Assembly: GCF_019970065.1 (NCBI RefSeq)
Contig: NZ_JAHXYH010000006.1
Span: 124,001-188,000, forward strand
Direction: 5' to 3'
DNA length: 64,000 nucleotides
From: Chryseobacterium sp. OSA05B
GTDB taxonomy: Bacteria > Bacteroidota > Bacteroidia > Flavobacteriales > Weeksellaceae
Every line of letters starts with the position of its first letter. Within the stretch, counting starts at the first letter, position 1. Below the pieces are notes generated by a model. The model was not told where the DNA came from. It was given only the letters and a program-made list of their open reading frames with translations, and did not search any database. Made by a program: the position numbers and the translations under genes. Below are positions 5,733 through 23,085 of this stretch, piece after piece.

Positions 5733-6473
5733 ATGAAAAAAATACTATTTTTATTCACGGCGGCCCTTTTTGTGTTGCAGTCGTGTATCATCAATTCTGA
5801 AATCGTATACCACAAAGATGCTGCATCCACTTCGGTTACAGATATCGACATGAAGCAGTTTATCTCCGAAATGAAAGCTATGACTCCTGATTCTCTAAAA
5901 CAGCAGACTGAATTCGGAGATATGGATAAGCTGCCTACCGTATGGACCAGTTTTCTGGATATTCAGAAAAAGGATGGAAAAAAGCAGACTTCGGATCCGG
6001 ACTCTATCAGGATCATGAAAAAGATCTTTATGAAAATGAATAAAGAAAACAATGAACCGGCCGGTATGTCTCTAAAAATGGATCACTTCACACAAACTGA
6101 TTATCAGTTTTTAAGCAGTTATAACAAAAAGGAAAAGCTTCCGCTGGATCAGAATATTTTCAATAACTGGGACGGAAAAACGCTGACCATCAATACAGAA
6201 AATTTCAATCTTAAAAATATCGAGCAGACCCTCAGAAGCAAAACCTCAAAAGAGGAAGCCGAAAAAGTAGAAGGAATGATCTCTATGTTCTTCAAAAGCA
6301 TCGGAACCACCCTGAAATTTGAAAACAAAATAAAATCCATCACCGGAAAACATGACTGGGTAAAGCAGATCGATCATTATACCGTAAAAATAGACTATGA
6401 TCTCAAGGCGATGTATGATAAGGAAGCAAAACTTAAAAATGCTGATAAGACTATTGTGATTGTGACAGAATAG
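5733..6473 (+). CDS. Lipoprotein of unknown function
   Basis: Not a family I recognise. The N-terminus is a lipoprotein signal (MKKILFLFTAALFVLQSC, lipobox LQSC with C18), so it is probably an anchored periplasmic or outer-membrane lipoprotein of 246 residues. The mature part is rich in Lys, Asp and Met and contains KIDYDLKAMYDKEAKLK near the end. It starts 17 nt after the TauE/SafE-like gene and may be the last member of the cbb3 operon, before a bidirectional terminator. Confidence 0.75.
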   Translation: MKKILFLFTAALFVLQSCIINSEIVYHKDAASTSVTDIDMKQFISEMKAMTPDSLKQQTEFGDMDKLPTVWTSFLDIQKKDGKKQTSDPDSIRIMKKIFMKMNKENNEPAGMSLKMDHFTQTDYQFLSSYNKKEKLPLDQNIFNNWDGKTLTINTENFNLKNIEQTLRSKTSKEEAEKVEGMISMFFKSIGTTLKFENKIKSITGKHDWVKQIDHYTVKIDYDLKAMYDKEAKLKNADKTIVIVTE

Positions 6474-6495
6474 AAACCGAACTTTAAACAGTATA

Positions 6496-6532
6496 TAAAA
6501 ATCCCCTCTCAGTTTTGAAAGGGGATTATTTA
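6496..6532. terminator. Bidirectional terminator between convergent genes
   Basis: AATCCCCT (6500-6507) pairs with AGGGGATT (6520-6527), with A-rich sequence on the left and T-rich on the right. It serves the lipoprotein gene on the plus strand and serS on the minus strand. Confidence 0.85.
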
Positions 6533-6549
6533 TGATATAGAAATATATT

Positions 6550-7818
6550 CTAGTTGATCAGATCGAATCTCGCATATTCTGCGATTTTCTTAGGAATTCT
6601 GATTCCTTCTTCGGTCTGATTGTTTTCAAGCAACGCCGCCATAATTCTTGGAAGAGCCATAGCAGAACCATTTAAGGTGTGTACCAACTGAGATTTTCCA
6701 TCTGTTTTGAAACGGCATTTCAGACGATTAGACTGGAAGGTTTCAAAATTGGATACAGAGCTTACTTCCAGCCACATTTCCTGAGCCGCACTCCATACTT
6801 CAAAGTCATAAGTCATGGCAGCTGCAAAACCAGTATCACCACCGCAAAGTCTCAGTACTCTGAACGGAAGTTCAAGGTCTGTAAGGATTTCTTTGATATG
6901 CTCTACCATTTCTTCCAAAGCGGCATAAGAGTTTTCAGGCTTTTCAAGTCTTACAATCTCCACTTTTTCAAACTGATGAAGACGGTTCAGTCCTCTTACG
7001 TGCGCCCCGTAACTTCCTGCTTCTCTTCTGTAGCACTGAGAGAACGCTGTATTTTTGATCGGAAGTTCTTTTTCTTCCAACAATACATCGCGGTACAAAT
7101 TGGTTACCGGAACTTCTGCCGTAGGAATCAGATAAAGATCATCAAGACCAATATGATACATTTGCCCTTCTTTGTCAGGAAGCTGTCCTGTTCCGTATCC
7201 TGAAGCTTCATTCACAACGTGAGGAGGATTCACCTCCATGTATCCTTTGTCAATGTTTTTATCCAGGAAATACTGAACCAAAGCTCTCTGAAGTCTTGCT
7301 CCTTTACCCAAATAAACAGGGAAACCGGCACCGGCAATTTTCACGCCCAGTTCAAAATCAATCAGGTTATATTTTTTCGCAAGTTCCCAGTGAGGAATAG
7401 CACCTTCTCCAAGACCTTCCACATCGTGAGACTGGTAAATATTCTCGTTGTCTTCCGCAGAAACTCCGCTTTTTACCAGTTGGTAAGGAACATTTGGAAT
7501 CTGATATAAAATATCCAGTAATTTTTTTTCCGTTACATCTAATTGGGACTGCAGTTCTTTACTCGATTCTTTATACTGAAGTGTTTTAGATTTTGCAGAT
7601 TCCGCTTCTTCTTTTTTACCTTCTTTCATCAAAAGCCCGATCTCTTTCGAGATTTTGTTCATTTCGGAAAGTTGGGAATCTAATTCAAACTGAATTCTTT
7701 TTCTTTCGTCGTCGGCAGCAACAGCGTCGTCTACCAACCCAAGATTCTTGAATTGTCTTTTCTTAAGACCTTCTAAAACGCGTTCTTTATCGTCGCGTAA
7801 AAAATTGACTTGTAACAT
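6550..7818 (-). CDS. serS: Seryl-tRNA synthetase
   Basis: Charges tRNA-Ser (and tRNA-Sec where present) with serine in the cytoplasm. The N-terminal 110 residues form the long antiparallel coiled coil that clasps tRNA (Glu/Lys/Ser-rich heptads). The class II catalytic core follows: motif 2 FSQCYRREAGSYG and motif 3 GSAMALPRIMAALLE near the C-terminus, plus the TAEVPVTN serine-binding segment. Length 422 is normal. The minus-strand start MLQVNFLRD is the family's usual N-terminus. Confidence 0.97.
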   Translation of the reverse strand: MLQVNFLRDDKERVLEGLKKRQFKNLGLVDDAVAADDERKRIQFELDSQLSEMNKISKEIGLLMKEGKKEEAESAKSKTLQYKESSKELQSQLDVTEKKLLDILYQIPNVPYQLVKSGVSAEDNENIYQSHDVEGLGEGAIPHWELAKKYNLIDFELGVKIAGAGFPVYLGKGARLQRALVQYFLDKNIDKGYMEVNPPHVVNEASGYGTGQLPDKEGQMYHIGLDDLYLIPTAEVPVTNLYRDVLLEEKELPIKNTAFSQCYRREAGSYGAHVRGLNRLHQFEKVEIVRLEKPENSYAALEEMVEHIKEILTDLELPFRVLRLCGGDTGFAAAMTYDFEVWSAAQEMWLEVSSVSNFETFQSNRLKCRFKTDGKSQLVHTLNGSAMALPRIMAALLENNQTEEGIRIPKKIAEYARFDLIN

Positions 7819-7874
7819 TTTATTTAGATGTTAAATATTAGATGGTTAACTTACATATTAAGCTAACCGTTTTA

Positions 7875-7882
7875 CAAATTTA
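7875..7882 (-). promoter_or_regulatory. Promoter -7 element for serS
   Basis: Minus-strand TAAATTTG fits the Bacteroidota consensus TAnnTTTG about 57 nt upstream of the serS start. No clear -33 TTTG is seen. Confidence 0.45.
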
Positions 7883-7884
7883 AA

Positions 7885-8409
7885 TTATTTTCTGATAGTA
7901 AAGGTATTTATCGCATTGGGAGCGTCTGCAGCTTTTGAAAATACCACCTCCCCATTGTACAGCACCTCTGAAATCTGAAATACGGATGGCGTCCACCGGT
8001 AACGGATTTCCATAGCATCCGTGACACTCACCGTCTGATTATTTACAATTTTACTCAGTGTAAAAGTCAGATTCGATTTATAGGTTCTGTTATCAGGGCT
8101 GACAGAATCCTTTATAATCCTTTTCGCTCCTTTAATGTATTCAAAATAATATAGGGAATCCGTTGTCATTCTAAGCGGAACAGCCACGGCTGCCACAGCG
8201 GTAGCTCCGTTATCGTCATTCACAGAATAACTGGTATAGGAACCTGCCTTTTTAGGGTTCATCAGATCCTGCCCTGCCGCATTTTTTATGGAGAAATTCA
8301 TAATCTGATCGATTCTCTGTAAAGAATCATCATCATTTCCGCATGAAACCATTAAAAAAAGGACAGCTATAAGTTTAAGTATGAAAATATGATTTAGCTT
8401 AGATTTCAT
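7885..8409 (-). CDS. Lipoprotein of unknown function
   Basis: 174-residue exported lipoprotein. The signal peptide ends in the lipobox VSCGND (Cys near residue 23) after a hydrophobic stretch FILKLIAVLFLM. Acidic residues directly after the Cys (NDDD) resemble lipoprotein export signals described for Bacteroidota surface lipoproteins. The rest is a beta-rich domain that I cannot assign. It is transcribed toward serS from a divergent promoter shared with the flippase gene. Confidence 0.75.
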   Translation of the reverse strand: MKSKLNHIFILKLIAVLFLMVSCGNDDDSLQRIDQIMNFSIKNAAGQDLMNPKKAGSYTSYSVNDDNGATAVAAVAVPLRMTTDSLYYFEYIKGAKRIIKDSVSPDNRTYKSNLTFTLSKIVNNQTVSVTDAMEIRYRWTPSVFQISEVLYNGEVVFSKAADAPNAINTFTIRK

Positions 8410-8440
8410 CTTCCGTTAATTTTCAATAATTTTTTTTATG

Positions 8441-8448
8441 CAAATGTA
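8441..8448 (-). promoter_or_regulatory. Promoter -7 element for the minus-strand lipoprotein gene
   Basis: Minus-strand TACATTTG matches TAnnTTTG 32 nt before the ATG at 8409. It lies back to back with the plus-strand -7 element at 8455-8462, leaving only 6 nt between the two. Confidence 0.5.
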
Positions 8449-8454
8449 TAATTA

Positions 8455-8462
8455 TATATTTG
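8455..8462 (+). promoter_or_regulatory. Promoter -7 element for the flippase gene
   Basis: TATATTTG matches TAnnTTTG 18 nt before the ATG at 8481. It would give a very short leader. The -33 region is T-rich without a clean TTTG. Confidence 0.5.
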
Positions 8463-8480
8463 TTCTCGTAATATTTTACC

Positions 8481-9713
8481 ATGTTTTTAAACAAACTCAA
8501 AAGATTAAACGGCAGCCACATCACCACCATCTTTAAGGGGAACTTTATTTCCAAGTTTGTTTTAGTGATCGGCGGGCTTTTGCTGGCCAAATATTACGGC
8601 TCATCTGAATATGGTATTTTCAGTATCTACCTCAGTATCATGAGTATATTTACGGTAGTACTCAGCCTTGCTCAGGAACATCTGATTATGCTTGAAGGAG
8701 ATGATGGGGAAGTGAATAATAATTTCAGTACGGCGGGAATTATTTCAGCAGCAGTAATGATTCTGGCTTTTTTGCTGATCATTATTCCCTTTGACATTCC
8801 TAAAAACATCGTATTTCTTGGGATCTTTTCCGGTTTTCTGTATTTATTCACCAATAATGCCAAGTTTCTGCTGGCCAAAAAAAAACTGTTTAAACTGGTT
8901 TCAGTACTTACCATCGTAGATTCCGTGGTGAGCTTTTTGTTTCAGGTGGTATTTGTCTTTATCAAGATAGAAAATGGTCTTGTAATCGGGAGCCTGATCG
9001 GGTATATTGCTGCTTTTCTTGCCGCTCTTTATTGCTGCAGAAAATATTTTGTAAAACCGGATCTGAAAAAATATATAGACAATGCGAAAAAAAGGCCGGA
9101 ACTTTTTAAATACGCCTATCCTTCCACACTGATCAATGCTTTGGGTAATAATATTATGCCCATCCTGATTTCGCTTTATTTTGCGGATTCGCTGCTGGGA
9201 GAATATTCTTTAGCGGTGAAAATCATGTCTGTCCCGCTTCTTCTGATCTCGTCTTCCATCGCAACGGTGTATTATCCCAGGGCTGCTGAACTTAACAACA
9301 GAGGCCGAAGCAGAAGTGAACTGTTTGCGTATACCAAAAAGATGAGCTTAATGAATTTTTACATTATTTTCGGGTTATACATCTTAGTCAACGTAGCCGG
9401 AATTCCTGTATTGGAACTATTTTTTAATAAAAACTGGGAGCATCTCGGACTGTTTATCTTCCTGATGTCATTCGGATACCTTACCCGAAGCCTTATCAAT
9501 CCTATTGCTGATATTCTTACTATCTTAAAGAGAAATAATGTAGCGCTGATCTTTAATATTTATTTATTCCTCGCCAATATGGCAGCAATCTTCATTGGAA
9601 AAGAAAAAGGAATCTCTTATCTGGTGGGTATTTTTTCCCTGTTTTTATTTATAGGCTATGGATTTTTGTATTTTTACATCATGTTTATCCTGAAGAAAAA
9701 TGAATCCGTTTAA
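8481..9713 (+). CDS. Polysaccharide flippase-type membrane protein (Wzx/MATE-like)
   Basis: Multispan (about 12 helices) inner-membrane protein of the oligosaccharide flippase family, which move lipid-linked glycans across the inner membrane. The N-terminal pattern [23 protein letters not shown], with the G-S-x-E-Y-G-IFS continuation, is typical of Wzx-like flippases. Length 410 is normal. Its stop overlaps the next gene, a hexapeptide acyltransferase, by 14 nt, so the two are co-translated. No glycosyltransferase cluster surrounds the pair, so its substrate is unknown. Confidence 0.85.
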
Positions 9714-10308
9714 AAAATTTATTGAATACCAGATTTTCCATAGAATTAATAATTTTTTCTATCCGGAATACTACCGTCAAAAATATGAGTACATGCTCCC
9801 TCATGTTCTTTTTTTCCATTATCTGGTTCCTCAAAAAATCCTGAGAATAAACGGAAACGTTCCTTGGCCGGTACATTTTACTTCAGAAGTAAGGAATCAT
9901 ACGAAGATTAAAAAGGGAATAATGTGTGACCCGGGTGATAACCCCAATATTTATATTCAGGCAAACAACGGCATCATTATCGGGCACAATGTAGGTTTCG
10001 GAGCGGGAACGTCTTTAATTTCTGCGAACCATAACCATAATGACCACAGCATCCATGATGAATGCGGGCCAATTGTTATCGGAAATAATGTTTTTGTGGG
10101 AACCAATTCTGTAATCCTTCCCGGGGTACAAATCGGGGACAATGTAGTCATCGGGGCGGGTTCCATCGTTGCGAAAGATATTCCGTCCAACTCCATCGCG
10201 GTGGGAAATCCATGTAAGGTGATCAAACAAAAAGAACCTTATATTGAAGACTTCACAAAGACTGTTTTTAACAGAAAACTTCCTGAAGGCGTCAATCTAA
10301 AGTTCTAG
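9700..10308 (+). CDS. Hexapeptide-repeat acyltransferase (left-handed beta-helix)
   Basis: O- or N-acetyltransferase-type enzyme of the LbetaH/maltose-acetyltransferase class. Isoleucine-patch hexapeptides run from about residue 85 to 165 (for example [37 protein letters not shown]), and [12 protein letters not shown] supplies candidate catalytic His residues. The terminal coil reads [21 protein letters not shown], a standard family ending. It overlaps the flippase gene by 14 nt; together they suggest modification and export of a cell-surface glycan. The acyl donor and substrate cannot be read from sequence. Confidence 0.88.
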
Positions 10309-10329
10309 TAGATTGTATTTTATATAGGT

Positions 10330-10818
10330 TTAAGCGATCCCGGCTGCCCAGCTTTTCTCGAATGGCAGAAGAAAGTGACTTAGAAAATCCAGATAGGTAT
10401 TTTTAGAAAAATCAAATACCTGAATATCTTTTGGCAATTCGCCGCTTCTCAGCTGAGATTTAAAGTCCTGAAGTTTCAGGGTCTTTATTTCATTATTCTG
10501 TACAAAGCTCGCTTTCATTCTATCGAAAAGGCCTAGCTGATACTGTTCATCGATCTCACGCATGATCTTCCCTAAGGCGTCAATGCTGCATCCTGAAGCC
10601 ATTTCTTTCTCCTCGTCTACACATACCACGATAAACTGATTTTTTTCGATTTTAAAGGATGAATCAAGCGGTTTTCCGTGTGCTGCCCAAGTCGCAAGGA
10701 AATCGAACAGTTTTTCGGTGATGGCTTTTGCTTCCTTTGTTTCAAAAGGTCTTGATGCGGGGTATATAATGACTCTGTAGTCGCTGGTTTCTACTATACT
10801 GGATTCTTCAATTTTCAT
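10330..10818 (-). CDS. Conserved protein of unknown function (no ATPase motifs)
   Basis: 162-residue soluble protein. Homologues in Flavobacteriia are, as I recall, often labelled ABC transporter ATPase, but no Walker A, signature or Walker B motif is visible, and the length is far below that of an ABC ATPase. It starts MKIEESSIVETSDYRVIIYPASRPF and has an alpha/beta composition without signal or membrane segments. It lies downstream of the Fe-S protein pair on the same strand but beyond a terminator hairpin, so it is probably separately transcribed. Confidence 0.7.
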   Translation of the reverse strand: MKIEESSIVETSDYRVIIYPASRPFETKEAKAITEKLFDFLATWAAHGKPLDSSFKIEKNQFIVVCVDEEKEMASGCSIDALGKIMREIDEQYQLGLFDRMKASFVQNNEIKTLKLQDFKSQLRSGELPKDIQVFDFSKNTYLDFLSHFLLPFEKSWAAGIA

Positions 10819-10869
10819 ATCCTGTCAATTTTAAAGTATAAAATTAAGAAATATTCCTGAGTTTATAAT

Positions 10870-10903
10870 CAACAAAAACCCAAGCTTATGCTTGAGTTTT
10901 TAT
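10870..10903 (-). terminator. Terminator after the HdrB-like gene
   Basis: AAAAACCCAAGC (10874-10885) pairs with GCTTGAGTTTTT (10890-10901) with one mismatch. On the minus strand it is followed by a T-run and lies about 20 nt past the stop of the HdrB-like gene. Confidence 0.75.
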
Positions 10904-10921
10904 ATATCTTTAGTACTGTTA

Positions 10922-11707
10922 TTATAAATCTTCTGCCTCAGCAAGAAGTTCTACAATATCTTTTACAGCTACTTCTTCGTTTTTATTAAAGTGCTTTACA
11001 CCGTCTGTCATCATTGTGTTACAGAACGGACATCCTGTAGCTATTACTTTAGGCTGAAAAGATAAAGCTTCTTCCGTTCTTTCAATATTGATGTCTTTGT
11101 TTCCTTTTTCAGGTTCTTTAAACATCTGTGCACCTCCTGCTCCACAACATAAACCGTTAGTTTTGCAACGTTTCATTTCTACAAGCTCAGCGTCCAGTTT
11201 TTCAAGAAGAATTCTTGGAGCTTCATACTCATTATTGGCTCTTCCGAGGTAGCATGGATCGTGGAAAGTGATCTTTTTTCCTTTAAAAGCTCCTCCTTCG
11301 ATCTTCAGTCTTCCTTCTTCCATTAAGGTTTTCAGAAACTGAGTATGGTGCACCACTTCATAATGTCCTCCCAGGCTTGGGTATTCATTTTTAAGGGTGT
11401 TGAAACAGTGAGGACATGCCGTAACGATCTTTTTCACTTCGTAAGCATTCAGGACCTCGATATTGGTAAGGGCCATCATCTGGAAAACGAATTCGTTTCC
11501 TGCTCTTTTTGCAGGATCTCCGGTACAGCTTTCTTCCTGTCCCAGAACAGCAAATTCAACGTCTATTTTGTTTAATATCTTGCAAAATGCTTTCGTTATC
11601 TTTTTGGCACGGTCGTCAAAACTTCCTGCACATCCCACCCAAAATAAAACTTCCGGGGATTTTCCTTCGGCAGCATATTCTGCCATTGTTTTTATATTGA
11701 AATCCAT
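10922..11707 (-). CDS. CCG-domain Fe-S protein (HdrB/LutA-like)
   Basis: Soluble Fe-S or disulfide-type redox protein with two cysteine-rich CCG domains, as in heterodisulfide reductase HdrB, LutA/LldE and glycolate oxidase GlcF. First repeat: C61 with CPHC at 98-101. Second repeat: HDPCYLGR (C152), C181 and CCG at 187-189, followed later by ATGCPFC. The operon neighbour is an HdrC-like membrane protein, so the pair probably forms a quinone-linked electron-transfer complex. The electron donor is not evident; no lactate or glycolate dehydrogenase gene is nearby. Confidence 0.88.
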   Translation of the reverse strand: MDFNIKTMAEYAAEGKSPEVLFWVGCAGSFDDRAKKITKAFCKILNKIDVEFAVLGQEESCTGDPAKRAGNEFVFQMMALTNIEVLNAYEVKKIVTACPHCFNTLKNEYPSLGGHYEVVHHTQFLKTLMEEGRLKIEGGAFKGKKITFHDPCYLGRANNEYEAPRILLEKLDAELVEMKRCKTNGLCCGAGGAQMFKEPEKGNKDINIERTEEALSFQPKVIATGCPFCNTMMTDGVKHFNKNEEVAVKDIVELLAEAEDL

Positions 11708-11717
11708 TTTTTCAAAT

Positions 11718-11789
11718 TTACCAATATGTCAATGTACCAGTTTACCAATGATTGCTACATTGCTACATTATTTTACATTGTTACATTAA
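11718..11789. repeat. Octad-type intergenic repeat
   Basis: Read on the minus strand the spacer is a chain of imperfect 8-nt units: AATGTAAC, AATGTAAA, then (after AT) AATGTAGC twice, AATCATTG, GTAAACTG, GTACATTG, ACATATTG. CAATGTA (11731-11737) can also pair with TACATTG (11757-11763). It fills the whole gap between the two Fe-S genes. Confidence 0.7.
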
Positions 11790-13124
11790 TTAATCATTTG
11801 CCCAGTTCAAACGGTCTGCCTGGTTATACTGCCAAGGAGCAGCATTGTTTTCTACGTTCGTCATCATCAGATTCAGTTCCTGAGGTGCAGCAGACTGCTC
11901 CATCACAAGGAATCTTCTCATTTCGAAAATTATAGAAAGCGGATCCAGCAACACCGGACATGCTTCCGTACATGCATTACACGTGGTACACGCCCAAAGT
12001 TCTTCTTTGGTAATATAATCATTCAGAAGCTTCTTACCGTCGTCTTCGAATTTTCCGTTTTTGTCAATGTTTCTGCCTACTTCTTCCAGCCTGTCTCTTG
12101 TTTTCATCAGGATCAGTCTCGGAGAAAGTTTTTTCCCGGTGATATTGGCAGGACATACCGAAGTACATCTCCCACATTCCGTACAGGAATAGGCATTAAG
12201 CAACTGTACCTGATTAAGGTCAAATACATCTTCTGCTCCAAATTTAGACGGAACTTCTGCAGCATCTCCCTCAGCCGGTGCGGCGTAAGGATCAGCGTTA
12301 GGATCCATCATTAATTTAATTTCCTTGGTTACAGAATCAAGATTATTGAATTTTCCTTTTTTATCAAGATTCGCAAACCAAGTACTTGGAAACGCCAAAA
12401 TGATATGAAGGTGTTTTGAGTAATAAAGATAATTCATGAAGAAAAGAATCCCCACAAAGTGGAACCACCAAGCTCCTTTTTCAACAAACATCAGAAACCC
12501 GTTATCAAAACTGAAAATCTCTAAAAACGGAACTAATGTCATTTCGCTGATCGGAAAGCTGCCATGCTCCGCAAGAACACCTCTCATCTGCAGAACATAA
12601 TCTGCAGAATTCATACTAAAGAACGCCATCATAAGGGCAAATTCAATGATAAGGATCCAGTTGGCATCATTTTTCGGCCATCCGAAAAGTTCTTTCATGG
12701 TGAGTCTTTTAACGCCATAAAAATTTCTTCTGATGAAAAACACAACTACTCCGATTACTACAAGCAACGCCAGAATTTCTAAAGTCGCTGTAAAAAAGTT
12801 GTAGAAACCATGTCCGAAAATGGAAGCTAAAAATCTGTGGGTTCCAAAGATTCCGTCAACGATAATTTCGATCAATTCAATATTGATAATCACAAAACCT
12901 ACGTAAACAAAAAGGTGAAGAATACCGGCTACAGGACGTTTTACCATTTTGCTCTGGCCCATCGCGACTCTGGCCATGGTTTCCCAGCGCTCAGATTTCC
13001 TGTCGCTTCTGTTGATTTCTCTTCCCAGCTTAATATTTCTGTAAATCTTTTGCAGGCTTTTTGCAAACAGCCCAAATCCAGCAATTAATAAGATCAGAAA
13101 AATAATGTTATCGATGTACTGCAT
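11790..13124 (-). CDS. Membrane-bound 4Fe-4S protein (HdrC-like with NarI-type membrane domain)
   Basis: Integral membrane electron carrier, 444 residues. Membrane helices lie at about 5-22, 66-90, 112-131, 155-172 and 222-245. A C-terminal dicluster ferredoxin domain follows: CTECGRCTSVCP (C314, C317, C320, C324) and CTTCNACTEACP (from C379). This fits proteins that link quinone-side hemes or quinone binding to a soluble CCG partner, here the next gene downstream. It starts 7 nt after the MCE gene, so mlaD-like, this gene and the HdrB-like gene appear to form one operon. Confidence 0.88.
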   Translation of the reverse strand: MQYIDNIIFLILLIAGFGLFAKSLQKIYRNIKLGREINRSDRKSERWETMARVAMGQSKMVKRPVAGILHLFVYVGFVIINIELIEIIVDGIFGTHRFLASIFGHGFYNFFTATLEILALLVVIGVVVFFIRRNFYGVKRLTMKELFGWPKNDANWILIIEFALMMAFFSMNSADYVLQMRGVLAEHGSFPISEMTLVPFLEIFSFDNGFLMFVEKGAWWFHFVGILFFMNYLYYSKHLHIILAFPSTWFANLDKKGKFNNLDSVTKEIKLMMDPNADPYAAPAEGDAAEVPSKFGAEDVFDLNQVQLLNAYSCTECGRCTSVCPANITGKKLSPRLILMKTRDRLEEVGRNIDKNGKFEDDGKKLLNDYITKEELWACTTCNACTEACPVLLDPLSIIFEMRRFLVMEQSAAPQELNLMMTNVENNAAPWQYNQADRLNWAND

Positions 13125-13131
13125 AAGGTGA

Positions 13132-14082
13132 TTAGTCTTTATTATTCTTACCGAAAACTGAGAAATTAATATATCTCTTAGGATTGGCTTTCATGTCTTC
13201 AATTAATGAATTCAGGTTGGTAGAAGCAGAATTAAGATTATTGTAAAGCTGCTCATCCTTCATGAGTTTACCTAAGCTTCCCTGTCCATTATCAACTCCT
13301 GAAATTACCTGATTAAGTTTTCCAACGGTTGCGTCTAAATTCGCTATTGTTGAATTCAACTTTTTGGTATCAATGCTTTCTGCAAGATTCCCGTATTTAT
13401 CCAATGTTACTTTACCACTTTGCATGGTAATCGCTGCATCATCAAGGACTTTCTGAAGTTTAGGATCATTATGTCCTACAAGGGTATTTACACTTCCTGC
13501 GGTAGCTTGTAAAGCACCTACCGTCTTATTAAGGTTGGAAAGTAACGCTTTGATCTCTGCTCTGTTCTGTGCATCTACCAATAGGTTGGCATTAGCCATT
13601 AGAGAGTCTACACGATGTAAAACAGTCTGCAGCTGATCTTTCACCGGACCAACCTGAGAAGAAAGACTTCCCAGCGTTCCCAGTTTGAAAGCTCCCTGAA
13701 GTGTATCTCCGTCTTTGGCCGTCTGACCGCCGTACATAAGATTTACTCTCATCTCTTTTCCGGACATAAGACCCGGTTCAAAGATTTCAAGGGTTGAATT
13801 TTTCGAAAACTCGAACTTGTCATCTACCGTAATTTTTACGATAAAACTGATTTTTCCGTCTTTTGCTGTCCTCGGGATAATCTTATCGACTTGCCCTACT
13901 TTCAGACCATTGATGGAAACCGCAGACGACTGTGCCAGTCCTTCTACGTTATCGTATTTTGCGTAAAATATATTATCGGTGGTAAAAAGGCTTCTGCCTT
14001 TCATGAATTGAAACAACACTACAAAACCTACAATAGCCAAAAGTGCGATCACACCAGCTTTTATTTCTTTACTGAACTTCAC
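13132..14082 (-). CDS. MCE-domain protein (MlaD family)
   Basis: Substrate-binding component of an MCE-type lipid transporter. An N-terminal helix (about residues 8-26, GVIALLAIVGFVVLFQF) is followed by the MCE domain (about 35-115, with YDNVEGLAQSSAVSINGLKVGQV and PGLMSGKEMRVNL) and a long alpha-helical, Asn/Leu-rich tail. The start codon is GTG (minus strand, 14080-14082); no in-frame ATG fits better. The matching permease and ATPase genes are not here but 18 kb away at 32.0-33.6 kb. Confidence 0.9.
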   Translation of the reverse strand: MKFSKEIKAGVIALLAIVGFVVLFQFMKGRSLFTTDNIFYAKYDNVEGLAQSSAVSINGLKVGQVDKIIPRTAKDGKISFIVKITVDDKFEFSKNSTLEIFEPGLMSGKEMRVNLMYGGQTAKDGDTLQGAFKLGTLGSLSSQVGPVKDQLQTVLHRVDSLMANANLLVDAQNRAEIKALLSNLNKTVGALQATAGSVNTLVGHNDPKLQKVLDDAAITMQSGKVTLDKYGNLAESIDTKKLNSTIANLDATVGKLNQVISGVDNGQGSLGKLMKDEQLYNNLNSASTNLNSLIEDMKANPKRYINFSVFGKNNKD

Positions 14083-14104
14083 TTGCTAATTTTTTTCTAA
14101 TGAG

Positions 14105-14112
14105 CAAATATA
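14105..14112 (-). promoter_or_regulatory. Promoter -7 element for the MCE/Fe-S operon
   Basis: Minus-strand TATATTTG (TAnnTTTG) lies 23 nt upstream of the GTG start of the MCE gene. No clean -33 element is seen. Confidence 0.5.
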
Positions 14113-14154
14113 ACACATTTTAAATTAATCTTTTTCTTTATTATTCTGCGTTAA

Positions 14155-14190
14155 ATACAAAAAAGCGACAGAAAATTCTGCCGCTTTATA
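14155..14190 (-). terminator. Terminator of ppiD
   Basis: AAAGCG-A-CAGA pairs with TCTG-C-CGCTTT (14162-14187). On the minus strand this is followed by a T-run, about 20 nt after the ppiD stop. Confidence 0.85.
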
Positions 14191-14208
14191 TCTGTAAAAA
14201 TAAATTTC

Positions 14209-16362
14209 TTACTGTTGTTGGTTTCCGATCTTATTCCAGATCTCGATTCTGTAATCTTCGATATCTGCATTATCCTGAAGACTCTTCATCCAAGCCTGTC
14301 CGAACATACCAGCATTTCTCTGGGTAATAGATTCTGTAAACTGCTTAAGGTCACCCGGCTGCTTGTTTATAGTTTCAGATTTTTTGATCAGAACATAAAC
14401 TCCTGTTCCACCTTCGATAGGGTTAGAAAGTTTTCCTTTCGCCACACCGAAAGCTGCACCGGTAACTTTAGGCTCCATAGAACCTGCTACTGAAGGGTTA
14501 AGCATATTAACCTGAGCAGCCTGTTTTGTAGAAGCAAATAATTTAGCGATCTGATCAAGGTTGGAAGCTTTAGCTGCTGCAATTTTATCAGAGATCTGTT
14601 TTGCTGCTAATTTATTTTTAACAATCACTTCGATCTGATCTCTTACTGATTCAGGATCTGCAAGACCTGCCTCCTGTTTTCCGTTAAGATATACTACAAT
14701 CTTATCTCCCGTACCTTCTACAGTAAATAATTCCGAATCTCCTTTGGATCTTTTCTTATCAAAAGCCCAGGCTAAGATCTCTCCGTCTTTATCGGTACCA
14801 AGACCCTGAAGCTGTCCGTCAAATCTTTTGGCTGCTTTAGGATTGGAGAACTGATAGTTTCCTTTTTTAGCAATATTCACGAAATCGTTGAAAGATTTCC
14901 CCTGAACCTGCTGAATGAATCTTCTTGCTTTTTTATCAGACTCTGCTTCTGTAGCGTCTGATGGCTTCACTTCTTTCACAAGGTTAGCCACTTTATAGCT
15001 CATAGACCCTGGTTTTTTATCTTCAATATTGATGATATGGTATCCGAACTGTGTTTCTACAACACCTGTAGCACCTTTAGGGTTATTCGCTAAGTAAGTA
15101 AGGAATTCCGGTACGAAAGGCGTTTCCGGAGTCGTCCATCCTAAGCTACCTGCCTGAGCTGCTGAACTTGGGTCGTTAGAAAGTTTTAAAAACTCTGTAA
15201 ATTTAGCTGGAGTAGCTTTAACGATAGCTCCGATAGAGTCTGCCAATTTCTTAGCCTGCTCTTTGGATCTCGTTACCCCTTCTCCTGCAGGGCTTCCTTT
15301 GAAAGCGATCAGGATATGTCTTGACAATGTAGAATCAGAAGTCTTTTTATCCAAAAGTTTTGAAACTACATAGAAGTTCTGCTCCTTGTATGGTCCGAAC
15401 GTCTGTCCGATAGCAGCCGTTGCAATCTGTCCCTGAATGTTCTGAGGCAATTGGTTAGGTTTTGCATACTGGTTGTTGAAAGGCATATCAGAATTAGCCA
15501 TTACAAACATAGAGTCATTCTTCGTGTTCTGGAAGTTTTCTGCTCCACCGCTTGCGTCTGTACCGCCTGAGAATAGTTTATTGATTTCCTTCTGAGCTGC
15601 TGCATCATCTGCAGGGCTAGGTGTAGAAGGAAAATATACGATTCCAACATTTCTGCTAGGTTCTGCTTTAAACATTACAGGGTGTTGCTTGATGTAGTTT
15701 TCAAGGTCTGCCGTAGTAACGTTGATCTTCGTTTTCTGAAGATATGCTGCATAGTCGATCTTTACAAAATCGATGTCAGCTAACTGGTCTCTCTGCTTCA
15801 TCAGCTCTTCAGCTTCTTTCTTGCCAGTAGTGATACCTGCTGAAATATTAGTAAACACCTGTCTTGCCATCAGTCTGTATTCAACTGTTTTTCTGGTTTT
15901 CAACCATTGGTTGTAGCCTTCCGGATTGGTGCCTTTTAATGTTTCAATTTCTTTTTTAAGCTCTTGAGTTTTAAAATTACCTTTCTCATCAAAGAACTGC
16001 TGTTGCTGGGCAAACATCTGATCATACTGGATCTGATTCCAGAAATAGTCGTCAGTCATCTCAAAGCCCAATTTCTCAAACTGCTGCTTGATAAGTTTAG
16101 ATTGTACAAGTAACTGCCAAGCCTGCTCTTCCAGTCCCGTTTTTGGACGACCCTGTTGTTCAGCCTGCTGCTGCAGTACGAAAAGCTGATCATTGAACTC
16201 TTCGCGGGTGACTTTCTCACCGTTTACTTTTCCTAAAACATCAGGATTTTTTCCAAAAACCTTGTCGATACTGTCTGGGTTTACGAGAAACGCTAAAAGC
16301 GCCAATGCGATCACTCCCATCAAAAGCCAAGGCTTACTCCTAATCTGTCCTAAAATTGCCAT
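14209..16362 (-). CDS. ppiD: Periplasmic folding chaperone / peptidyl-prolyl isomerase (PpiD/SurA-like)
   Basis: Membrane-anchored periplasmic foldase for outer-membrane and secreted proteins, 717 residues. One N-terminal helix (about 12-30, PWLLMGVIALALLAFLV) is followed by a SurA-N-like chaperone region (VNGEKVTREEFND) and a long helical segment. A parvulin domain lies at about 345-455 (SRHILIAFKG to VVETQFGYHIINI), and a second, degenerate chaperone region runs to the C-terminus. Length and order match Bacteroidota PpiD. It has its own terminator and is divergent from lon. Confidence 0.93.
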   Translation of the reverse strand: MAILGQIRSKPWLLMGVIALALLAFLVNPDSIDKVFGKNPDVLGKVNGEKVTREEFNDQLFVLQQQAEQQGRPKTGLEEQAWQLLVQSKLIKQQFEKLGFEMTDDYFWNQIQYDQMFAQQQQFFDEKGNFKTQELKKEIETLKGTNPEGYNQWLKTRKTVEYRLMARQVFTNISAGITTGKKEAEELMKQRDQLADIDFVKIDYAAYLQKTKINVTTADLENYIKQHPVMFKAEPSRNVGIVYFPSTPSPADDAAAQKEINKLFSGGTDASGGAENFQNTKNDSMFVMANSDMPFNNQYAKPNQLPQNIQGQIATAAIGQTFGPYKEQNFYVVSKLLDKKTSDSTLSRHILIAFKGSPAGEGVTRSKEQAKKLADSIGAIVKATPAKFTEFLKLSNDPSSAAQAGSLGWTTPETPFVPEFLTYLANNPKGATGVVETQFGYHIINIEDKKPGSMSYKVANLVKEVKPSDATEAESDKKARRFIQQVQGKSFNDFVNIAKKGNYQFSNPKAAKRFDGQLQGLGTDKDGEILAWAFDKKRSKGDSELFTVEGTGDKIVVYLNGKQEAGLADPESVRDQIEVIVKNKLAAKQISDKIAAAKASNLDQIAKLFASTKQAAQVNMLNPSVAGSMEPKVTGAAFGVAKGKLSNPIEGGTGVYVLIKKSETINKQPGDLKQFTESITQRNAGMFGQAWMKSLQDNADIEDYRIEIWNKIGNQQQ

Positions 16363-19423: not shown

Positions 19424-20536
19424 ATGAATTTCCTTAGACTCCCGTTTCTTGTTAAATTGACAATGGTCACCATTTCCATCATTGGTCTCGGTTACCTGTT
19501 AGCGCTTGGACAGAGCATTTTAGCTCCTTTCTTCCTGGCTTTTTTAATGGCCATGCTGTTTCTTCCGGCCGCGACTTTCATGGAAAGAAGATTAAGATTT
19601 CCAAGATCCATCTCCACGATGACTTCGGTTTTCGTGATGCTCGCTATTTTAGCCGGGATTATTTATTTTTTCGGATCACAGCTTTCCGATTTCAGTAAAG
19701 ACCTGCCGCATCTCAGAGATCAGATGACCACAGTTTTTAATAATCTGCAGCACTGGATTTCAAAAACATTCAACGTAAAAATCGATGAACAGCTTGATTA
19801 TATTAATCAGGGTTTGAATAAACTGCTATCCTCTTCGGGAGTGATTCTTGGTTTCACTTTCGGGATATTTTCAAGTGGATTTGGCTTTATTGTATTCTTC
19901 ACGCTGTTTTTTATCTTTATCTTAAACTACAGAAGAATTCTTAATAATTTCATTGTAACGGTTTTTAACGAAAAGCATAAAGCCAGCGTACAGGAAGTAG
20001 TCACCGAAATCCGGGTAATGACGAAAAAATATATTTTCGGGCTATGCCTGCAGGTTTTGATTGTTTCTATTCTTTCTTCTATTGTTCTAACCATTTTAGG
20101 CGTAAAATATGCGATCCTACTTGCTGTTTTGACAGGGTTACTCAACGTTATTCCTTATCTGGGAATCTGTATTTCCCTTTTAATTTCATGTTTCATCGCC
20201 TTTGCCACCGGAACACCATCTACCTGTGTGTATGTAGCCATTGGATATATTGCCATTCACATTATTGACGGAAATATCGTTCTTCCATTTGTAGTGGGTT
20301 CAAAAGTAAAGATCAATGCCCTGTTCTCTTTTATAGGCATTATTTTAGGCGAACATCTTTGGGGAATTGCAGGTATGTTTCTTTGTATTCCGGCCATTGC
20401 CATCATTAAAATTATCTTTGAAAGAGTAGATGGATTAAAACCATGGGGTAAACTGCTCGGGGAGGAAGAAAAACCTAACAAAAAGAAGAAGAGTTACAAG
20501 ATTTCTAAGAATATTACGCTGAAGGAAATGGATTAA
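19424..20536 (+). CDS. AI-2E/PerM-family membrane transporter
   Basis: Polytopic permease of the AI-2E (TqsA/YdiK/PerM) family; members are exporters of signalling molecules or Na+/H+ antiporters. It has about eight helices in the usual two-block pattern: two pairs before residue 90, a soluble segment at about 90-150, and the conserved C-terminal block with LLNVIPYLGICIS and GEHLWGIAGMFLCIPAIAIIKIIFE. The tail is Lys-rich (EEKPNKKKKSYK). Substrate cannot be assigned. It is monocistronic, with a palindromic heptad repeat and a terminator downstream. Confidence 0.88.
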   Translation: MNFLRLPFLVKLTMVTISIIGLGYLLALGQSILAPFFLAFLMAMLFLPAATFMERRLRFPRSISTMTSVFVMLAILAGIIYFFGSQLSDFSKDLPHLRDQMTTVFNNLQHWISKTFNVKIDEQLDYINQGLNKLLSSSGVILGFTFGIFSSGFGFIVFFTLFFIFILNYRRILNNFIVTVFNEKHKASVQEVVTEIRVMTKKYIFGLCLQVLIVSILSSIVLTILGVKYAILLAVLTGLLNVIPYLGICISLLISCFIAFATGTPSTCVYVAIGYIAIHIIDGNIVLPFVVGSKVKINALFSFIGIILGEHLWGIAGMFLCIPAIAIIKIIFERVDGLKPWGKLLGEEEKPNKKKKSYKISKNITLKEMD

Positions 20537-20546
20537 TCATGAATAA

Positions 20547-20618
20547 TAAGCAATGGGTAATGAGTAACATATAAGGACAAATAGTAGTTATTACTTATTG
20601 CTCATTACCCATTACTTA
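20547..20618. repeat. Inverted heptad repeat between convergent genes
   Basis: Left arm: TAAGCAA, TGGGTAA, TGAGTAA, CATATAA (20547-20574). Right arm, read on the minus strand: TAAGTAA, TGGGTAA, TGAGCAA, TAAGTAA (from 20618 downward). Both arms are built of 7-nt units and can form a hairpin of about 20 bp. Confidence 0.8.
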
Positions 20619-20620
20619 TA

Positions 20621-20660
20621 AAAAAAGAGGGCTGCCTTAAAAAAGACAGCCATTATTTTT
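20621..20660. terminator. Bidirectional terminator
   Basis: GGCTG-C-CTT pairs with AAG-A-CAGCC (20630-20651) and is flanked by A6 on the left and T5 on the right. It closes both the AI-2E family gene and the minus-strand double-glycine peptide gene. Confidence 0.85.
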
Positions 20661-20913
20661 AAACTATAGCAGCGCAGAACGGGCTCATTCCGCTTGGGCA
20701 GATCTGGTCGCAAGGAATGTAAGACTGATTGTCCGGACAGTATCCTAAATCCGTTCCCGGATTGGTACCGCCGCCACCTCCTCCTAAGCAAGGGTCTCCC
20801 GGTGGAATTTTACAAGGACAACCTACCGGTCCGATATCACAGATTGGCTCTCTTCCACCTCCATTAATTTTCTTTAAATTCTCCCGATCTAATTTTTGAA
20901 GTTTTTTCAACAT
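20659..20913 (-). CDS. Cys-rich double-glycine leader peptide (bacteriocin-like)
   Basis: 84-residue precursor peptide. The leader MLKKLQKLDRENLKKINGGG has the amphipathic Lys/Leu pattern and the GG cleavage site (18-20) recognised by C39-peptidase ABC exporters; such bacteriocin-like peptides are common in Chryseobacterium. The core has eight cysteines (25, 32, 34, 42, 59, 68, 72, 80), many Pro and Gly, and a run of six Gly at about 44-49. Eight Cys could form four disulfides or be modified. No exporter, maturation enzyme or immunity gene is adjacent, so activity is uncertain. It has its own -7 element and terminator. Confidence 0.8.
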   Translation of the reverse strand: MLKKLQKLDRENLKKINGGGREPICDIGPVGCPCKIPPGDPCLGGGGGGTNPGTDLGYCPDNQSYIPCDQICPSGMSPFCAAIV

Positions 20914-20942
20914 AATACGATTGTTTAGTTTAATTTGAATGA

Positions 20943-20950
20943 CAAAGATA
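20943..20950 (-). promoter_or_regulatory. Promoter -7 element for the Cys-rich peptide
   Basis: Minus-strand TATCTTTG fits TAnnTTTG 30 nt upstream of the ATG. No -33 TTTG at the right spacing. Confidence 0.5.
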
Positions 20951-21069: not shown

Positions 21070-21447
21070 ATGAAAATCGTAAAATTTATCCTTTCGTTCA
21101 TCTTTGCATTGATGTTTATTCATGCAGGACTGAACAAGTTCTTTCACTATTCACCAATGCCTAAGATGTCCGATGAGCAGATAAAGATCTTTGCTGCATT
21201 CGGGGAAATCGGCTGGCTGCTACCCTTAGTGGGAATCGTAGAAATTGTTGGCGGAGTCCTATTTATCTTCCAGAAGACCAAAGCTTTGGGCGCTATTATC
21301 CTCCTTCCTGTTATGGTGGGAATTGTTATTCATAATATATACAGAGACCCGAACCAGATGGGGATCATCACAGCTGTAGTCATGTTCCTGATCAATATTT
21401 GGGCAATTATTGATGACCGGGAGAAATATAAGGCTTTGATTAGTTGA
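21070..21447 (+). CDS. DoxX-family membrane protein
   Basis: 125-residue four-helix inner-membrane protein of the DoxX/DoxD-like superfamily, whose members are linked to redox or sulfur metabolism but mostly uncharacterised. Helices lie at about 4-22, 46-66, 73-90 and 97-115. The first helix ends in ALMFIHAGLNKFFH, the typical DoxX pattern. It is monocistronic and convergent with the acyl-CoA dehydrogenase gene. Confidence 0.82.
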   Translation: MKIVKFILSFIFALMFIHAGLNKFFHYSPMPKMSDEQIKIFAAFGEIGWLLPLVGIVEIVGGVLFIFQKTKALGAIILLPVMVGIVIHNIYRDPNQMGIITAVVMFLINIWAIIDDREKYKALIS

Positions 21448-21518: not shown

Positions 21519-22877
21519 CTATACAAACGCACTGAATCCGGTAATAGATCTTCCCACAATCAGTGAATTGATCTCTTTTGTTCCTTCATAAGAATAGATG
21601 GCTTCAGCATCGGCCACGAATCTGGCCACATCATATTCTAGGAGAATACCATTTCCTCCCATTACTTCTCTTGCTCTGGAAACAATATCTCTGGTTCTCA
21701 GAGTACAGAAAACTTTGGCTAGTGAGGCATGCTCGTCTTTTAAAATTCCTTCATCCTGCATTTCGGACAATCTGAAAACCATGGTCTGCATGGCCGTAAG
21801 ATTGGAAAGCATTTCCACCAGATGCCCCTGGATCATTTGAAATGAGGCAATAGGTTTCCCGAACTGCTCTCTGGTTCTGGTATATTGTAATGCGCTTTCA
21901 TAGGCTCCTCTCGCGCAACCTGTGGCCATCCATGCCACTCCGGCTCTGGTCATACGCAGTACTTTTCCTGTATCTTTAAATGAATTGGCATTTTGAAGAC
22001 GGTTTTCTTCGGTTACCAGACAATCCTTCAAGGTGATTAATCCATTTTGCACAATTCTCAGTGCCATTTTACCTTTTATTTTCTCAACGGAATAGCCCGG
22101 ATTGTCTTTTTCTACAATAAATCCTTTCACTTCGCCACTATCGAGGTCTCTTGCCCAGATAATGATCAGGTCTGCAAATGTTGCATTTCCGATCCATTTT
22201 TTCTGGCCGTTAAGAATCCAGCCTTCCTCAGTTTTTTTACAGGTTACTGTCAGGCCGCCCGCTGCTCCAGATCCTACTTCAGGTTCTGTGAGGCCAAAAG
22301 CTCCTATTTTTTCAAATTTCTGCATCTGAGGAAGCCATTTCTGTTTCTGTTCTTCCGATCCGCAAATATAAATAGAGCCCATCGCCAGCCCTGACTGAAC
22401 GCCGAAGAAAGTCGCAATAGAAGCATCTATTCTCGCCATTTCCATCGCAATAACGCCTTCCATCAGAAAAGGCATGCCCGGACAGCCGTATCCATCGTAG
22501 GTTACACCGCAGATATTCAGTTTCTGGAATTTGGGAATGAGTTCAAAAGGGAATTCATCTCTGAGCCAGTAATGATTCACTAAAGGTTTCACTTCTTTTT
22601 CCATGAATGCTCTTACTTTAAGCTGGATCTCGCGTTGTTCCGGCGTCAGTGTATGGTAGATATCATAAAAATCACCATCAATAGGCGGAAGTTCCCGCTT
22701 TTTCTTATTGGGATCAAGCATTTTCATCATTCCGTTCAACTGTTTGTCATCCAGTTTTGAGAAGTTCTGCATCAGCTTCGGCAGATCAACTTTTTGAGAA
22801 ATAGCACTCAGCTGGTCAAAATCTATTGATCTGAATAATTCTATCGCGTTTCTGATTTTGGAAAAAGTATTTGACAT
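21519..22877 (-). CDS. Acyl-CoA dehydrogenase (glutaryl-CoA dehydrogenase-like)
   Basis: FAD flavoenzyme that oxidises acyl-CoA thioesters. After an unusual N-terminal helical extension of about 80 residues come the ACAD N-domain, the FAD-binding loop AFGLTEPEVGSGAAGG, and the C-terminal ARxxMGGNGI region (SRAREVMGGNGILLEYDVAR) with YSYEGTKEIN, whose Glu matches the catalytic base of glutaryl-CoA and isovaleryl-type enzymes. The ending VGRSITGFSAF resembles glutaryl-CoA dehydrogenases. I chose the ATG at 22877 (MSNTFSKIRNAIELF) over one 57 nt upstream, since the extra residues look non-native. Substrate is not certain. Confidence 0.88.
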   Translation of the reverse strand: MSNTFSKIRNAIELFRSIDFDQLSAISQKVDLPKLMQNFSKLDDKQLNGMMKMLDPNKKKRELPPIDGDFYDIYHTLTPEQREIQLKVRAFMEKEVKPLVNHYWLRDEFPFELIPKFQKLNICGVTYDGYGCPGMPFLMEGVIAMEMARIDASIATFFGVQSGLAMGSIYICGSEEQKQKWLPQMQKFEKIGAFGLTEPEVGSGAAGGLTVTCKKTEEGWILNGQKKWIGNATFADLIIIWARDLDSGEVKGFIVEKDNPGYSVEKIKGKMALRIVQNGLITLKDCLVTEENRLQNANSFKDTGKVLRMTRAGVAWMATGCARGAYESALQYTRTREQFGKPIASFQMIQGHLVEMLSNLTAMQTMVFRLSEMQDEGILKDEHASLAKVFCTLRTRDIVSRAREVMGGNGILLEYDVARFVADAEAIYSYEGTKEINSLIVGRSITGFSAFV

Positions 22878-23085
22878 AGTAATGTTTTGTGGGATTGATT
22901 TGTAAAAGTTAAGCAAAAACTGCTCCGAAAACAAGTCATTCTATGAGGTATTATTTTACAAAACACTCATTTACAACAAATTAAAATACAAATATTTCTT
23001 TACAAACTTTTTGCGATTGATTTTCAAATATTACAAAGGATCCTGCCTGAACTTTGACCTAAGAAAACCCACAAAAATCAACGCT

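What the first reader, a model, noticed from the sequence alone, without database searches (positions are those of the whole stretch)
20659..20950. Orphan Cys-rich double-glycine precursor peptide
MLKKLQKLDRENLKKINGGG leader, eight Cys, a Gly6 run and Pro-rich core, with its own promoter element and terminator. No exporter or modifying enzyme nearby, so it must use machinery encoded elsewhere, or act differently. Eight Cys suggests a multi-disulfide product.
Basis: partly seen in the sequence, partly recalled or inferred. Interest (0 to 1): 0.6.

Follow-up and report, generated by a model that had tools for sequence, protein, structure and literature searches.

The report
Conserved cysteine-rich secreted peptide, Chryseobacterium
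A small gene encodes a probably secreted, eight-cysteine peptide that many Chryseobacterium species keep at the same place in the chromosome, while its likely exporter and disulfide-making partner sit elsewhere in the genome beside sister peptides with the same leader.

Summary
Window 20659-20913(-) encodes an 84-aa peptide with a canonical double-glycine leader and eight Cys, its own promoter box and terminator. The leader belongs to a family NCBI already names (NF047798, 'bacteriocin-like protein'), so the kind is known. 'Orphan' holds only locally: 44 such leaders pass the cut-off in this genome, and of its three C39-ABC exporters one lies among two of these peptides, a VKOR-DsbA fusion and an HlyD adaptor; the other two have different enzymes and precursors. 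An even Cys count in 64 of 66 family-like peptides (controls 5 of 21 and 11 of 29) points to disulfides. This member is unusually fixed: full-length in 38 of 60 genus genomes, syntenic in the 30 loci fetched, eight Cys invariant in 29 of 29 aligned, median dN/dS 0.12. Three genomes hold a four-Cys version at the same slot, so it is two four-Cys modules on a variable linker. Conservation and the lack of a recognised immunity gene speak against a fast-evolving bacteriocin; target and expression are unknown.

The parts
20659..20913 (-). 84-aa double-glycine precursor peptide ORF with 8 Cys (stop codon included)
   Evidence: NF047798 27.9 bits, cut-off 23.5; orthologues
20857..20913 (-). leader, residues 1-19, predicted C39 cleavage after G18-G19 (L at -12 and -7, I at -4); G20 is also Gly, so the exact cut could be one residue on
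   Evidence: sequence; NF047798 match to residues 1-18; PCAT leader consensus in passages of PMC6959990; same positions in paralogues
20779..20841 (-). module A, residues 25-45: CDIGPxGCPCxIPPGDPCLGG, 4 Cys, median dN/dS 0.03
   Evidence: alignment; dN/dS
20749..20778 (-). Gly/Pro-rich linker, residues 46-55, variable in length, median dN/dS 0.45 (the Gly6 run spans G44-G49)
20671..20748 (-). module B, residues 56-81: GYCPDsqsYIPCxxxCPnGmxPlCA, 4 Cys; in three genomes it follows the leader directly at the same slot
   Evidence: AlphaFold2 block means exceed 70 only in residues 61-80
20943..20950 (-). TATCTTTG, Bacteroidota-type -7 promoter box
   Evidence: TANNTTTG starting 28-39 nt before the ATG in 27 of 29 orthologues
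20630..20651 (-). intrinsic terminator hairpin GGCTGTC...GGCAGCC followed by a T run
19424..20536 (+). conserved neighbour: AI-2E family transporter (PF01594)
21070..21447 (+). frequent neighbour: DoxX-like protein (PF07681)
21519..22934 (-). conserved neighbour: acyl-CoA dehydrogenase

Best explanation
This is the precursor of a small secreted disulfide-rich peptide. It is transcribed alone from its own promoter. The leader is recognised and cut after Gly-Gly by the C39 peptidase domain of the ABC exporter on contig C121, and the peptide is exported with the HlyD adaptor encoded there. The eight Cys are paired, probably two disulfides per four-Cys module, by the VKOR-DsbA fusion encoded beside the exporter. 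One exporter/oxidase hub would thus serve dozens of precursors scattered over the chromosome. This one has become a vertically inherited, strongly conserved component of much of the genus rather than a fast-turnover bacteriocin. Shown: ORF, leader, promoter box, terminator, conservation, two-module make-up, hub gene content, even-Cys bias. Inferred: that it is expressed, which exporter handles it, cleavage, disulfide pattern, secretion. Unknown: target and activity.
For: Leader: NF047798 over cut-off; L(-12), L(-7), I(-4), GG as in PCAT substrates (passages of PMC6959990); in 62 of 66 own-genome peptides that could be placed, -12 is L or I in 59, -7 is L in 53, -4 is I, V or L in 62. Hub: L064 holds a VKOR + Thioredoxin_4 fusion, C39-ABC, HlyD_3 protein and two peptides with the NF047798 leader (38.2 and 28.5 bits). 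The fusion's only Cys are 175, 187, CRVC 254-257 and CGFC 366-369. The other two C39-ABC loci have LanB/LanC with a pinensin-leader precursor, and a radical SAM enzyme with an ORF that has no NCBIfam match. Co-occurrence in the 60 genus genomes: all 56 with NF047798 hits at E up to 0.001 have the close fusion (in G038 only in two pieces); of the 4 without hits, 3 lack the close fusion (Fisher p 1.2e-4, phylogeny not corrected). Even Cys count in 64 of 66 peptides, 42 of 44 among those over the cut-off, 21 of 22 clusters; controls 5 of 21 and 11 of 29. All 8 Cys invariant in 29 of 29 aligned orthologues. Synteny in 30 of 30 loci fetched. Median dN/dS 0.12.
Against: No expression, cleavage or mass data. 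The hub is on another contig, so the pairing rests on leader similarity and co-occurrence. This peptide's leader is a weak family member (24.4 bits in the genome search, 40th of 44 over the cut-off), and position -8 is Asn where the PCAT consensus has Glu. G029 keeps fusion, exporter and HlyD without an NF047798 hit; G053 keeps the exporter at 92% without the close fusion or leaders; G038 has 42 leader hits although its fusion is found only in two pieces with stops. So machinery and leaders are not strictly tied. AlphaFold2 gives no confident fold for the whole peptide (mean pLDDT 53). Of the 66 peptides in the parity count, 22 are below the family cut-off, and at E up to 10 the leader model also rings in 8 of 14 control genomes, none over the cut-off.
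Confidence: 0.75

Rival explanations
1. It is a classical bacteriocin (class II type) against related bacteria, exported by the same hub.
For: Double-glycine leader; NCBI names the family 'bacteriocin-like'; bacteroidetocins, with a C39-ABC transporter and in most regions a thiol oxidoreductase gene, are toxins of Bacteroidetes thought to be disulfide-bonded (passages of PMC6671954).
Against: No recognised immunity gene beside it: the neighbours are an AI-2E transporter, a DoxX-like protein and an acyl-CoA dehydrogenase. The DoxX-like gene, the one small neighbour, is not tied to the peptide: it is found beside 9 of 13 empty slots and is missing beside three peptide genes (L044-L046). Fixed slot and purifying selection; many species carry nearly the same peptide, so kin killing would need shared immunity. 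The bacteroidetocin TM protein was not searched for.
Confidence: 0.3
2. It is a secreted signalling or interaction peptide (for kin, or for a plant or animal host) rather than a toxin.
For: Full-length copy in 38 of 60 genus genomes, invariant Cys, low dN/dS; own promoter box; many sister peptides with different cores.
Against: No receptor or regulator recognised among the three neighbours; absent, short or decayed in most of the other 22 genomes, so it is dispensable.
Confidence: 0.35
3. It is a metal-binding (metallothionein- or chelator-like) secreted peptide, the Cys acting as ligands.
For: Eight Cys including CPC and CxxxC spacings.
Against: Even-Cys parity across the family and a VKOR-DsbA oxidase beside the likely exporter favour disulfides.
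Confidence: 0.08
4. It uses the lanthipeptide (C143) or radical SAM (C99) C39 exporter and is enzymatically modified.
For: Both loci have full-length C39-ABC genes.
Against: The C143 precursor carries a pinensin leader and the C99 ORF matches no NCBIfam family; of the three exporters only C121 has NF047798 hits beside it.
Confidence: 0.07

Closest known systems
NCBIfam NF047798 leader_Chryseo ('bacteriocin-like protein')
   Same: Leader matches end to end over the curated cut-off; 56 of 60 genus genomes hold 6 to 45 hits at E up to 0.001.
   Different: The model covers only 18 leader residues; the 8-Cys two-module core, its synteny and its exporter are not part of it.
Bacteroidetocins (PMC6671954; passages read)
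   Same: Bacteroidetes; GG leader (15 aa there); Cys-containing core; C39-ABC transporter; thiol oxidoreductase thought to make the disulfides.
   Different: There the peptide gene lies beside the machinery, with a five-TM protein and four Cys in bacteroidetocins A and B; here it lies apart, has eight Cys in two modules, and no toxicity is known.
PCAT1/CtA-type GG peptide export (PMC6959990; passages read)
   Same: L(-12), L(-7), hydrophobic -4, GG leader and C39-ABC logic.
   Different: Leader position -8 is Asn rather than Glu; a VKOR-DsbA fusion is encoded with the exporter.
NF047792 CCPGW family putative bacteriocin
   Same: The peptide beside the C121 exporter (L064:7695-7886) resembles it (23.6 bits, far below its cut-off of 80).
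   Different: The window peptide shows no match to it at E up to 10.

Membership tests
NF047798 leader_Chryseo | match to the leader model over the curated cut-off | tested here: met
   27.9 bits against 23.5
NF047798 leader_Chryseo | product is antibacterial, as the name suggests | not testable with these tools
   the family name is an annotation only
C39/PCAT substrate (double-glycine precursor) | GG at -2/-1 with L at -12 and -7 and a hydrophobic -4 | tested here: met
   L8, L13, I16, G18G19; consensus from passages of PMC6959990; Glu at -8 of that consensus is Asn here
C39/PCAT substrate (double-glycine precursor) | a C39-ABC exporter in the genome | tested here: met
   three, all over cut-off
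C39/PCAT substrate (double-glycine precursor) | cleavage and export by it | not testable with these tools
   needs mutants and mass spectrometry
Bacteroidetocin | peptide gene in a cluster with TM protein and C39-ABC (and mostly a thiol oxidoreductase) | tested here: not met
   no C39 in the window; neighbours are an AI-2E transporter, DoxX-like protein and acyl-CoA dehydrogenase
Bacteroidetocin | core homology to bacteroidetocin A/B | not tested
   no bacteroidetocin sequence was compared; no Pfam hit for the peptide
Lanthipeptide (pinensin type) | pinensin leader | tested here: not met
   the window peptide has no NF038180 match at E up to 10, the C143 precursor has one
Graspetide (chryseoviridin type) | ATP-grasp ligase near the precursor | not tested
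   only the three neighbouring genes were identified and none is an ATP-grasp

The most novel reading that the evidence does not exclude
Chryseobacterium runs one leader-addressed export and oxidative-folding hub (C39-ABC, HlyD and a VKOR-DsbA fusion whose N-terminal domain looks like a C39 peptidase without Cys and could hold leaders) that serves a dispersed secretome of dozens of disulfide miniproteins; the window peptide, two four-Cys modules on a linker, is a product of it that is kept by descent for a role other than killing.
Probability: 0.4. Interest if true: 0.7.

Novelty: new member of a known kind. Interest (0 to 1): 0.45.

Why it matters
If right, a single transport and disulfide hub explains how one Gram-negative genus can secrete dozens of different Cys-rich miniproteins from scattered genes. 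A peptide kept at one chromosomal place under strong selection is a good handle for finding what such 'bacteriocin-like' peptides do, and a warning that this automatic label may be wrong for conserved members.

Tried and rejected
Pfam gave no hit for the peptide at E up to 10. PDB sequences gave only two chance-level hits, to circumsporozoite protein (E 0.84 and 0.93). Plasmids: no match. AlphaFold2 of the whole peptide is poor (mean pLDDT 53; block means 72 and 75 for residues 61-80). A free-standing module A was looked for in 11 genomes: the weak hits are other four- and six-Cys peptides that share mainly the leader, so the idea was dropped. A claim that leaders and hub are strictly tied was dropped because of G029, G053 and G038. 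My first Cys-parity count (61 of 66) counted only residues after an automatic cut that fell too far in for three peptides; counting whole peptides gives 64 of 66. Three of the 69 hits (the weakest, E 2.1 to 3.0) were left out of that count. The core-BLAST clusters are single-linkage and loose. One of the 30 orthologue loci (L058) was missed by a position filter, so 29 were aligned; alignment A1 used 19. The sigma-70 scan was uninformative (3 found, mean 2.1 in shuffles).

Papers: eight searches. Among the listed papers I saw no study of these peptides; searches had more holders than were listed (385, 44 and 77 against 15, 15 and 12). 'Chryseobacterium' with 'bacteriocin-like protein' gave 0 papers. 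Passages read: PMC6671954, PMC6959990, PMC8939145 (chryseoviridin graspetides of Chryseobacterium, another kind), PMC10634447 (one table mention of bacteriocin), PMC6256643 (antiSMASH reports one bacteriocin cluster in C. indologenes PgBE177, not described further). The library lacks most subscription journals, so this is not proof of absence.

Full report
What is there. The minus-strand ORF 20659-20913 encodes 84 residues with eight Cys and a double-glycine leader. The nearest named record carrying the gene is Chryseobacterium oleae (95% over 84 residues), so the window is very probably from that genus. The leader matches NCBIfam NF047798 leader_Chryseo over its cut-off; Pfam has no match. 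The gene stands alone between an AI-2E family transporter and a DoxX-like gene followed by an acyl-CoA dehydrogenase (names).

Expression signals. A TATCTTTG box lies at 20943-20950 (minus strand); a TANNTTTG box starts 28-39 nt before the ATG in 27 of 29 orthologues, the exceptions being L038 and L050. A hairpin with a T run follows the gene, and hairpins with changed but still complementary arms follow the orthologues (read by eye, not counted). That TAnnTTTG is the Bacteroidota -7 element is recalled, not from a call.

Conservation. Of 60 genus genomes (own included), 38 have a full-length relative; one of these (G039) reads with two stops. None of the 39 genomes of other genera matches. 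A scan of a collection with one genome per species for 84,980 species, using two patterns from module A, found 63 loci: 61 in records titled Chryseobacterium and 2 from one Weeksellaceae MAG; copies without module A would be missed. Sixty of the 63 read as ATG-started with eight Cys; one more (L126) has all eight with the ATG one codon in; the two MAG fragments do not. In the 30 loci fetched (its best-scoring matches; one is the own locus), each keeps at least two of the three neighbours. All eight Cys are invariant in 29 of 29 aligned. Median pairwise dN/dS is 0.12 overall, 0.13 in the leader, 0.03 in module A, 0.45 in the linker and 0.15 in module B. Synonymous sites are near saturation in many pairs; non-finite pairs were left out (for example 311 of 406 pairs used overall).

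Two modules. In the 22 genus genomes without a full-length copy the slot was inspected. Three (G009, G040, G045) hold a 51-residue peptide with the leader followed almost directly by module B only (four Cys). Four (G002, G003, G014, G015) show broken or partial remnants. Thirteen have a gap of 20-151 bases with nothing recognisable. Two (G013, G021) could not be decided. So the 84-residue peptide is leader, module A (four Cys), Gly/Pro linker, module B (four Cys), and module B can stand without module A. Whether the short form is ancestral or derived was not tested. AlphaFold2 block means exceed 70 only in residues 61-80, inside module B.

Machinery. The genome has three C39 transporters, all with ABC domains. 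The C121 locus (L064) holds a VKOR-Thioredoxin_4 fusion, C39-ABC and HlyD_3 protein with two NF047798 peptides interleaved. The C143 locus holds LanB-N, LanB-C and LanC with a pinensin-leader precursor. The C99 locus holds a radical SAM protein with an 89-residue ORF that matches no NCBIfam family. The fusion has exactly six Cys, at 175, 187, 254, 257, 366 and 369, the set expected for a VKOR-DsbA oxidase (expectation recalled). Its N-terminal 135 residues contain no Cys and match PF03412 only weakly (E 0.03, below cut-off). Their model (mean pLDDT 73.7) has PCAT1 chains and a LahT-type double-glycine peptidase as its 13 best Foldseek matches, best probability 0.99, but best E-value only 0.058, none at 0.001, and TM-scores about 0.4. 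I read this as a probable C39-like domain without a catalytic Cys; that it holds leaders is speculation.

Link between peptide and hub. All 56 genus genomes with NF047798 hits have the close fusion (59% identity or more; in G038 only in two pieces with stops). Of the four without hits, G011 and G057 lack it, G053 has only a distant one at 25%, and G029 has it. Fisher p is 1.2e-4 without phylogenetic correction. G053 still has the exporter at 92%. G029 has fusion, exporter and HlyD but no GG peptide was seen between fusion and exporter. I fetched eight further loci around fusions. In seven (L217, L219-L224) the close fusion and C39-ABC lie on the same stretch, in L221 about 5 kb apart, and HlyD follows except in L221, where the stretch ends; six of these seven (not L217, G029) have GG peptides among them. 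L218 (G053) has the C39-ABC and only the distant fusion.

Disulfides. Of 69 hits in the own genome at E up to 10, 66 peptides were extracted and 64 have an even number of Cys: 42 of the 44 over the family cut-off and 22 of the 22 below it. Grouped by core similarity, 21 of 22 clusters are mostly even. Control ORFs of the window with 3-9 Cys are even in 5 of 21 (150 aa or longer) and 11 of 29 (40-99 aa); these controls are mechanical ORFs and include non-genes.

Reading. Best supported is a secreted two-module disulfide peptide addressed by its leader to the C121 hub. The fixed slot, purifying selection and the lack of a recognised immunity gene beside it make a classical bacteriocin less likely than the family name suggests, but no activity was tested. 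Bacteroidetocins (PMC6671954, passages only) show that C39-ABC with a thiol oxidoreductase is an established arrangement in the phylum, so the mechanism is not new in kind. What may be new is the scale of the dispersed peptide set and this conserved, modular member. The literature searches, listed with their limits under Tried and rejected, showed no description of it.

Noticed in passing
window 20543-20615: Inverted pair of GTAATGRGYAATRAGTAAT-like repeats just 3' of the terminator; the 4 matches in the window with up to 3 mismatches are all here, 0.11 expected. Similar stretches are seen after several orthologues (by eye); possibly a REP-like element.
   Followed up: partly
L065 (G000:C143) 7572-15593: C39-ABC, LanB in two parts, LanC and a precursor hitting leader_pinensin (44.2 bits, cut-off 24): a pinensin-like lanthipeptide locus.
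   Followed up: partly
L066 (G000:C99) 6072-9926: Radical SAM protein plus C39-ABC with an 89-residue ORF that may be its precursor.
   Followed up: no
L064 6083-6487 (G000:C121): N-terminal domain of the VKOR-DsbA fusion resembles a C39 peptidase domain but has no Cys.
   Followed up: partly
L217 (G029:C13): Genome G029 keeps fusion, C39-ABC (88%) and HlyD but has no NF047798 hit at E up to 0.001: machinery without recognised cargo.
   Followed up: partly
L067, L069, L071 and L224: Arrays of different Cys-rich GG peptides, up to ten on one strand within about 4.2 kb in L224.
   Followed up: no
G000:C99:249602: A 94-aa family peptide with a long Gly/Val-rich stretch before its four Cys.
   Followed up: no
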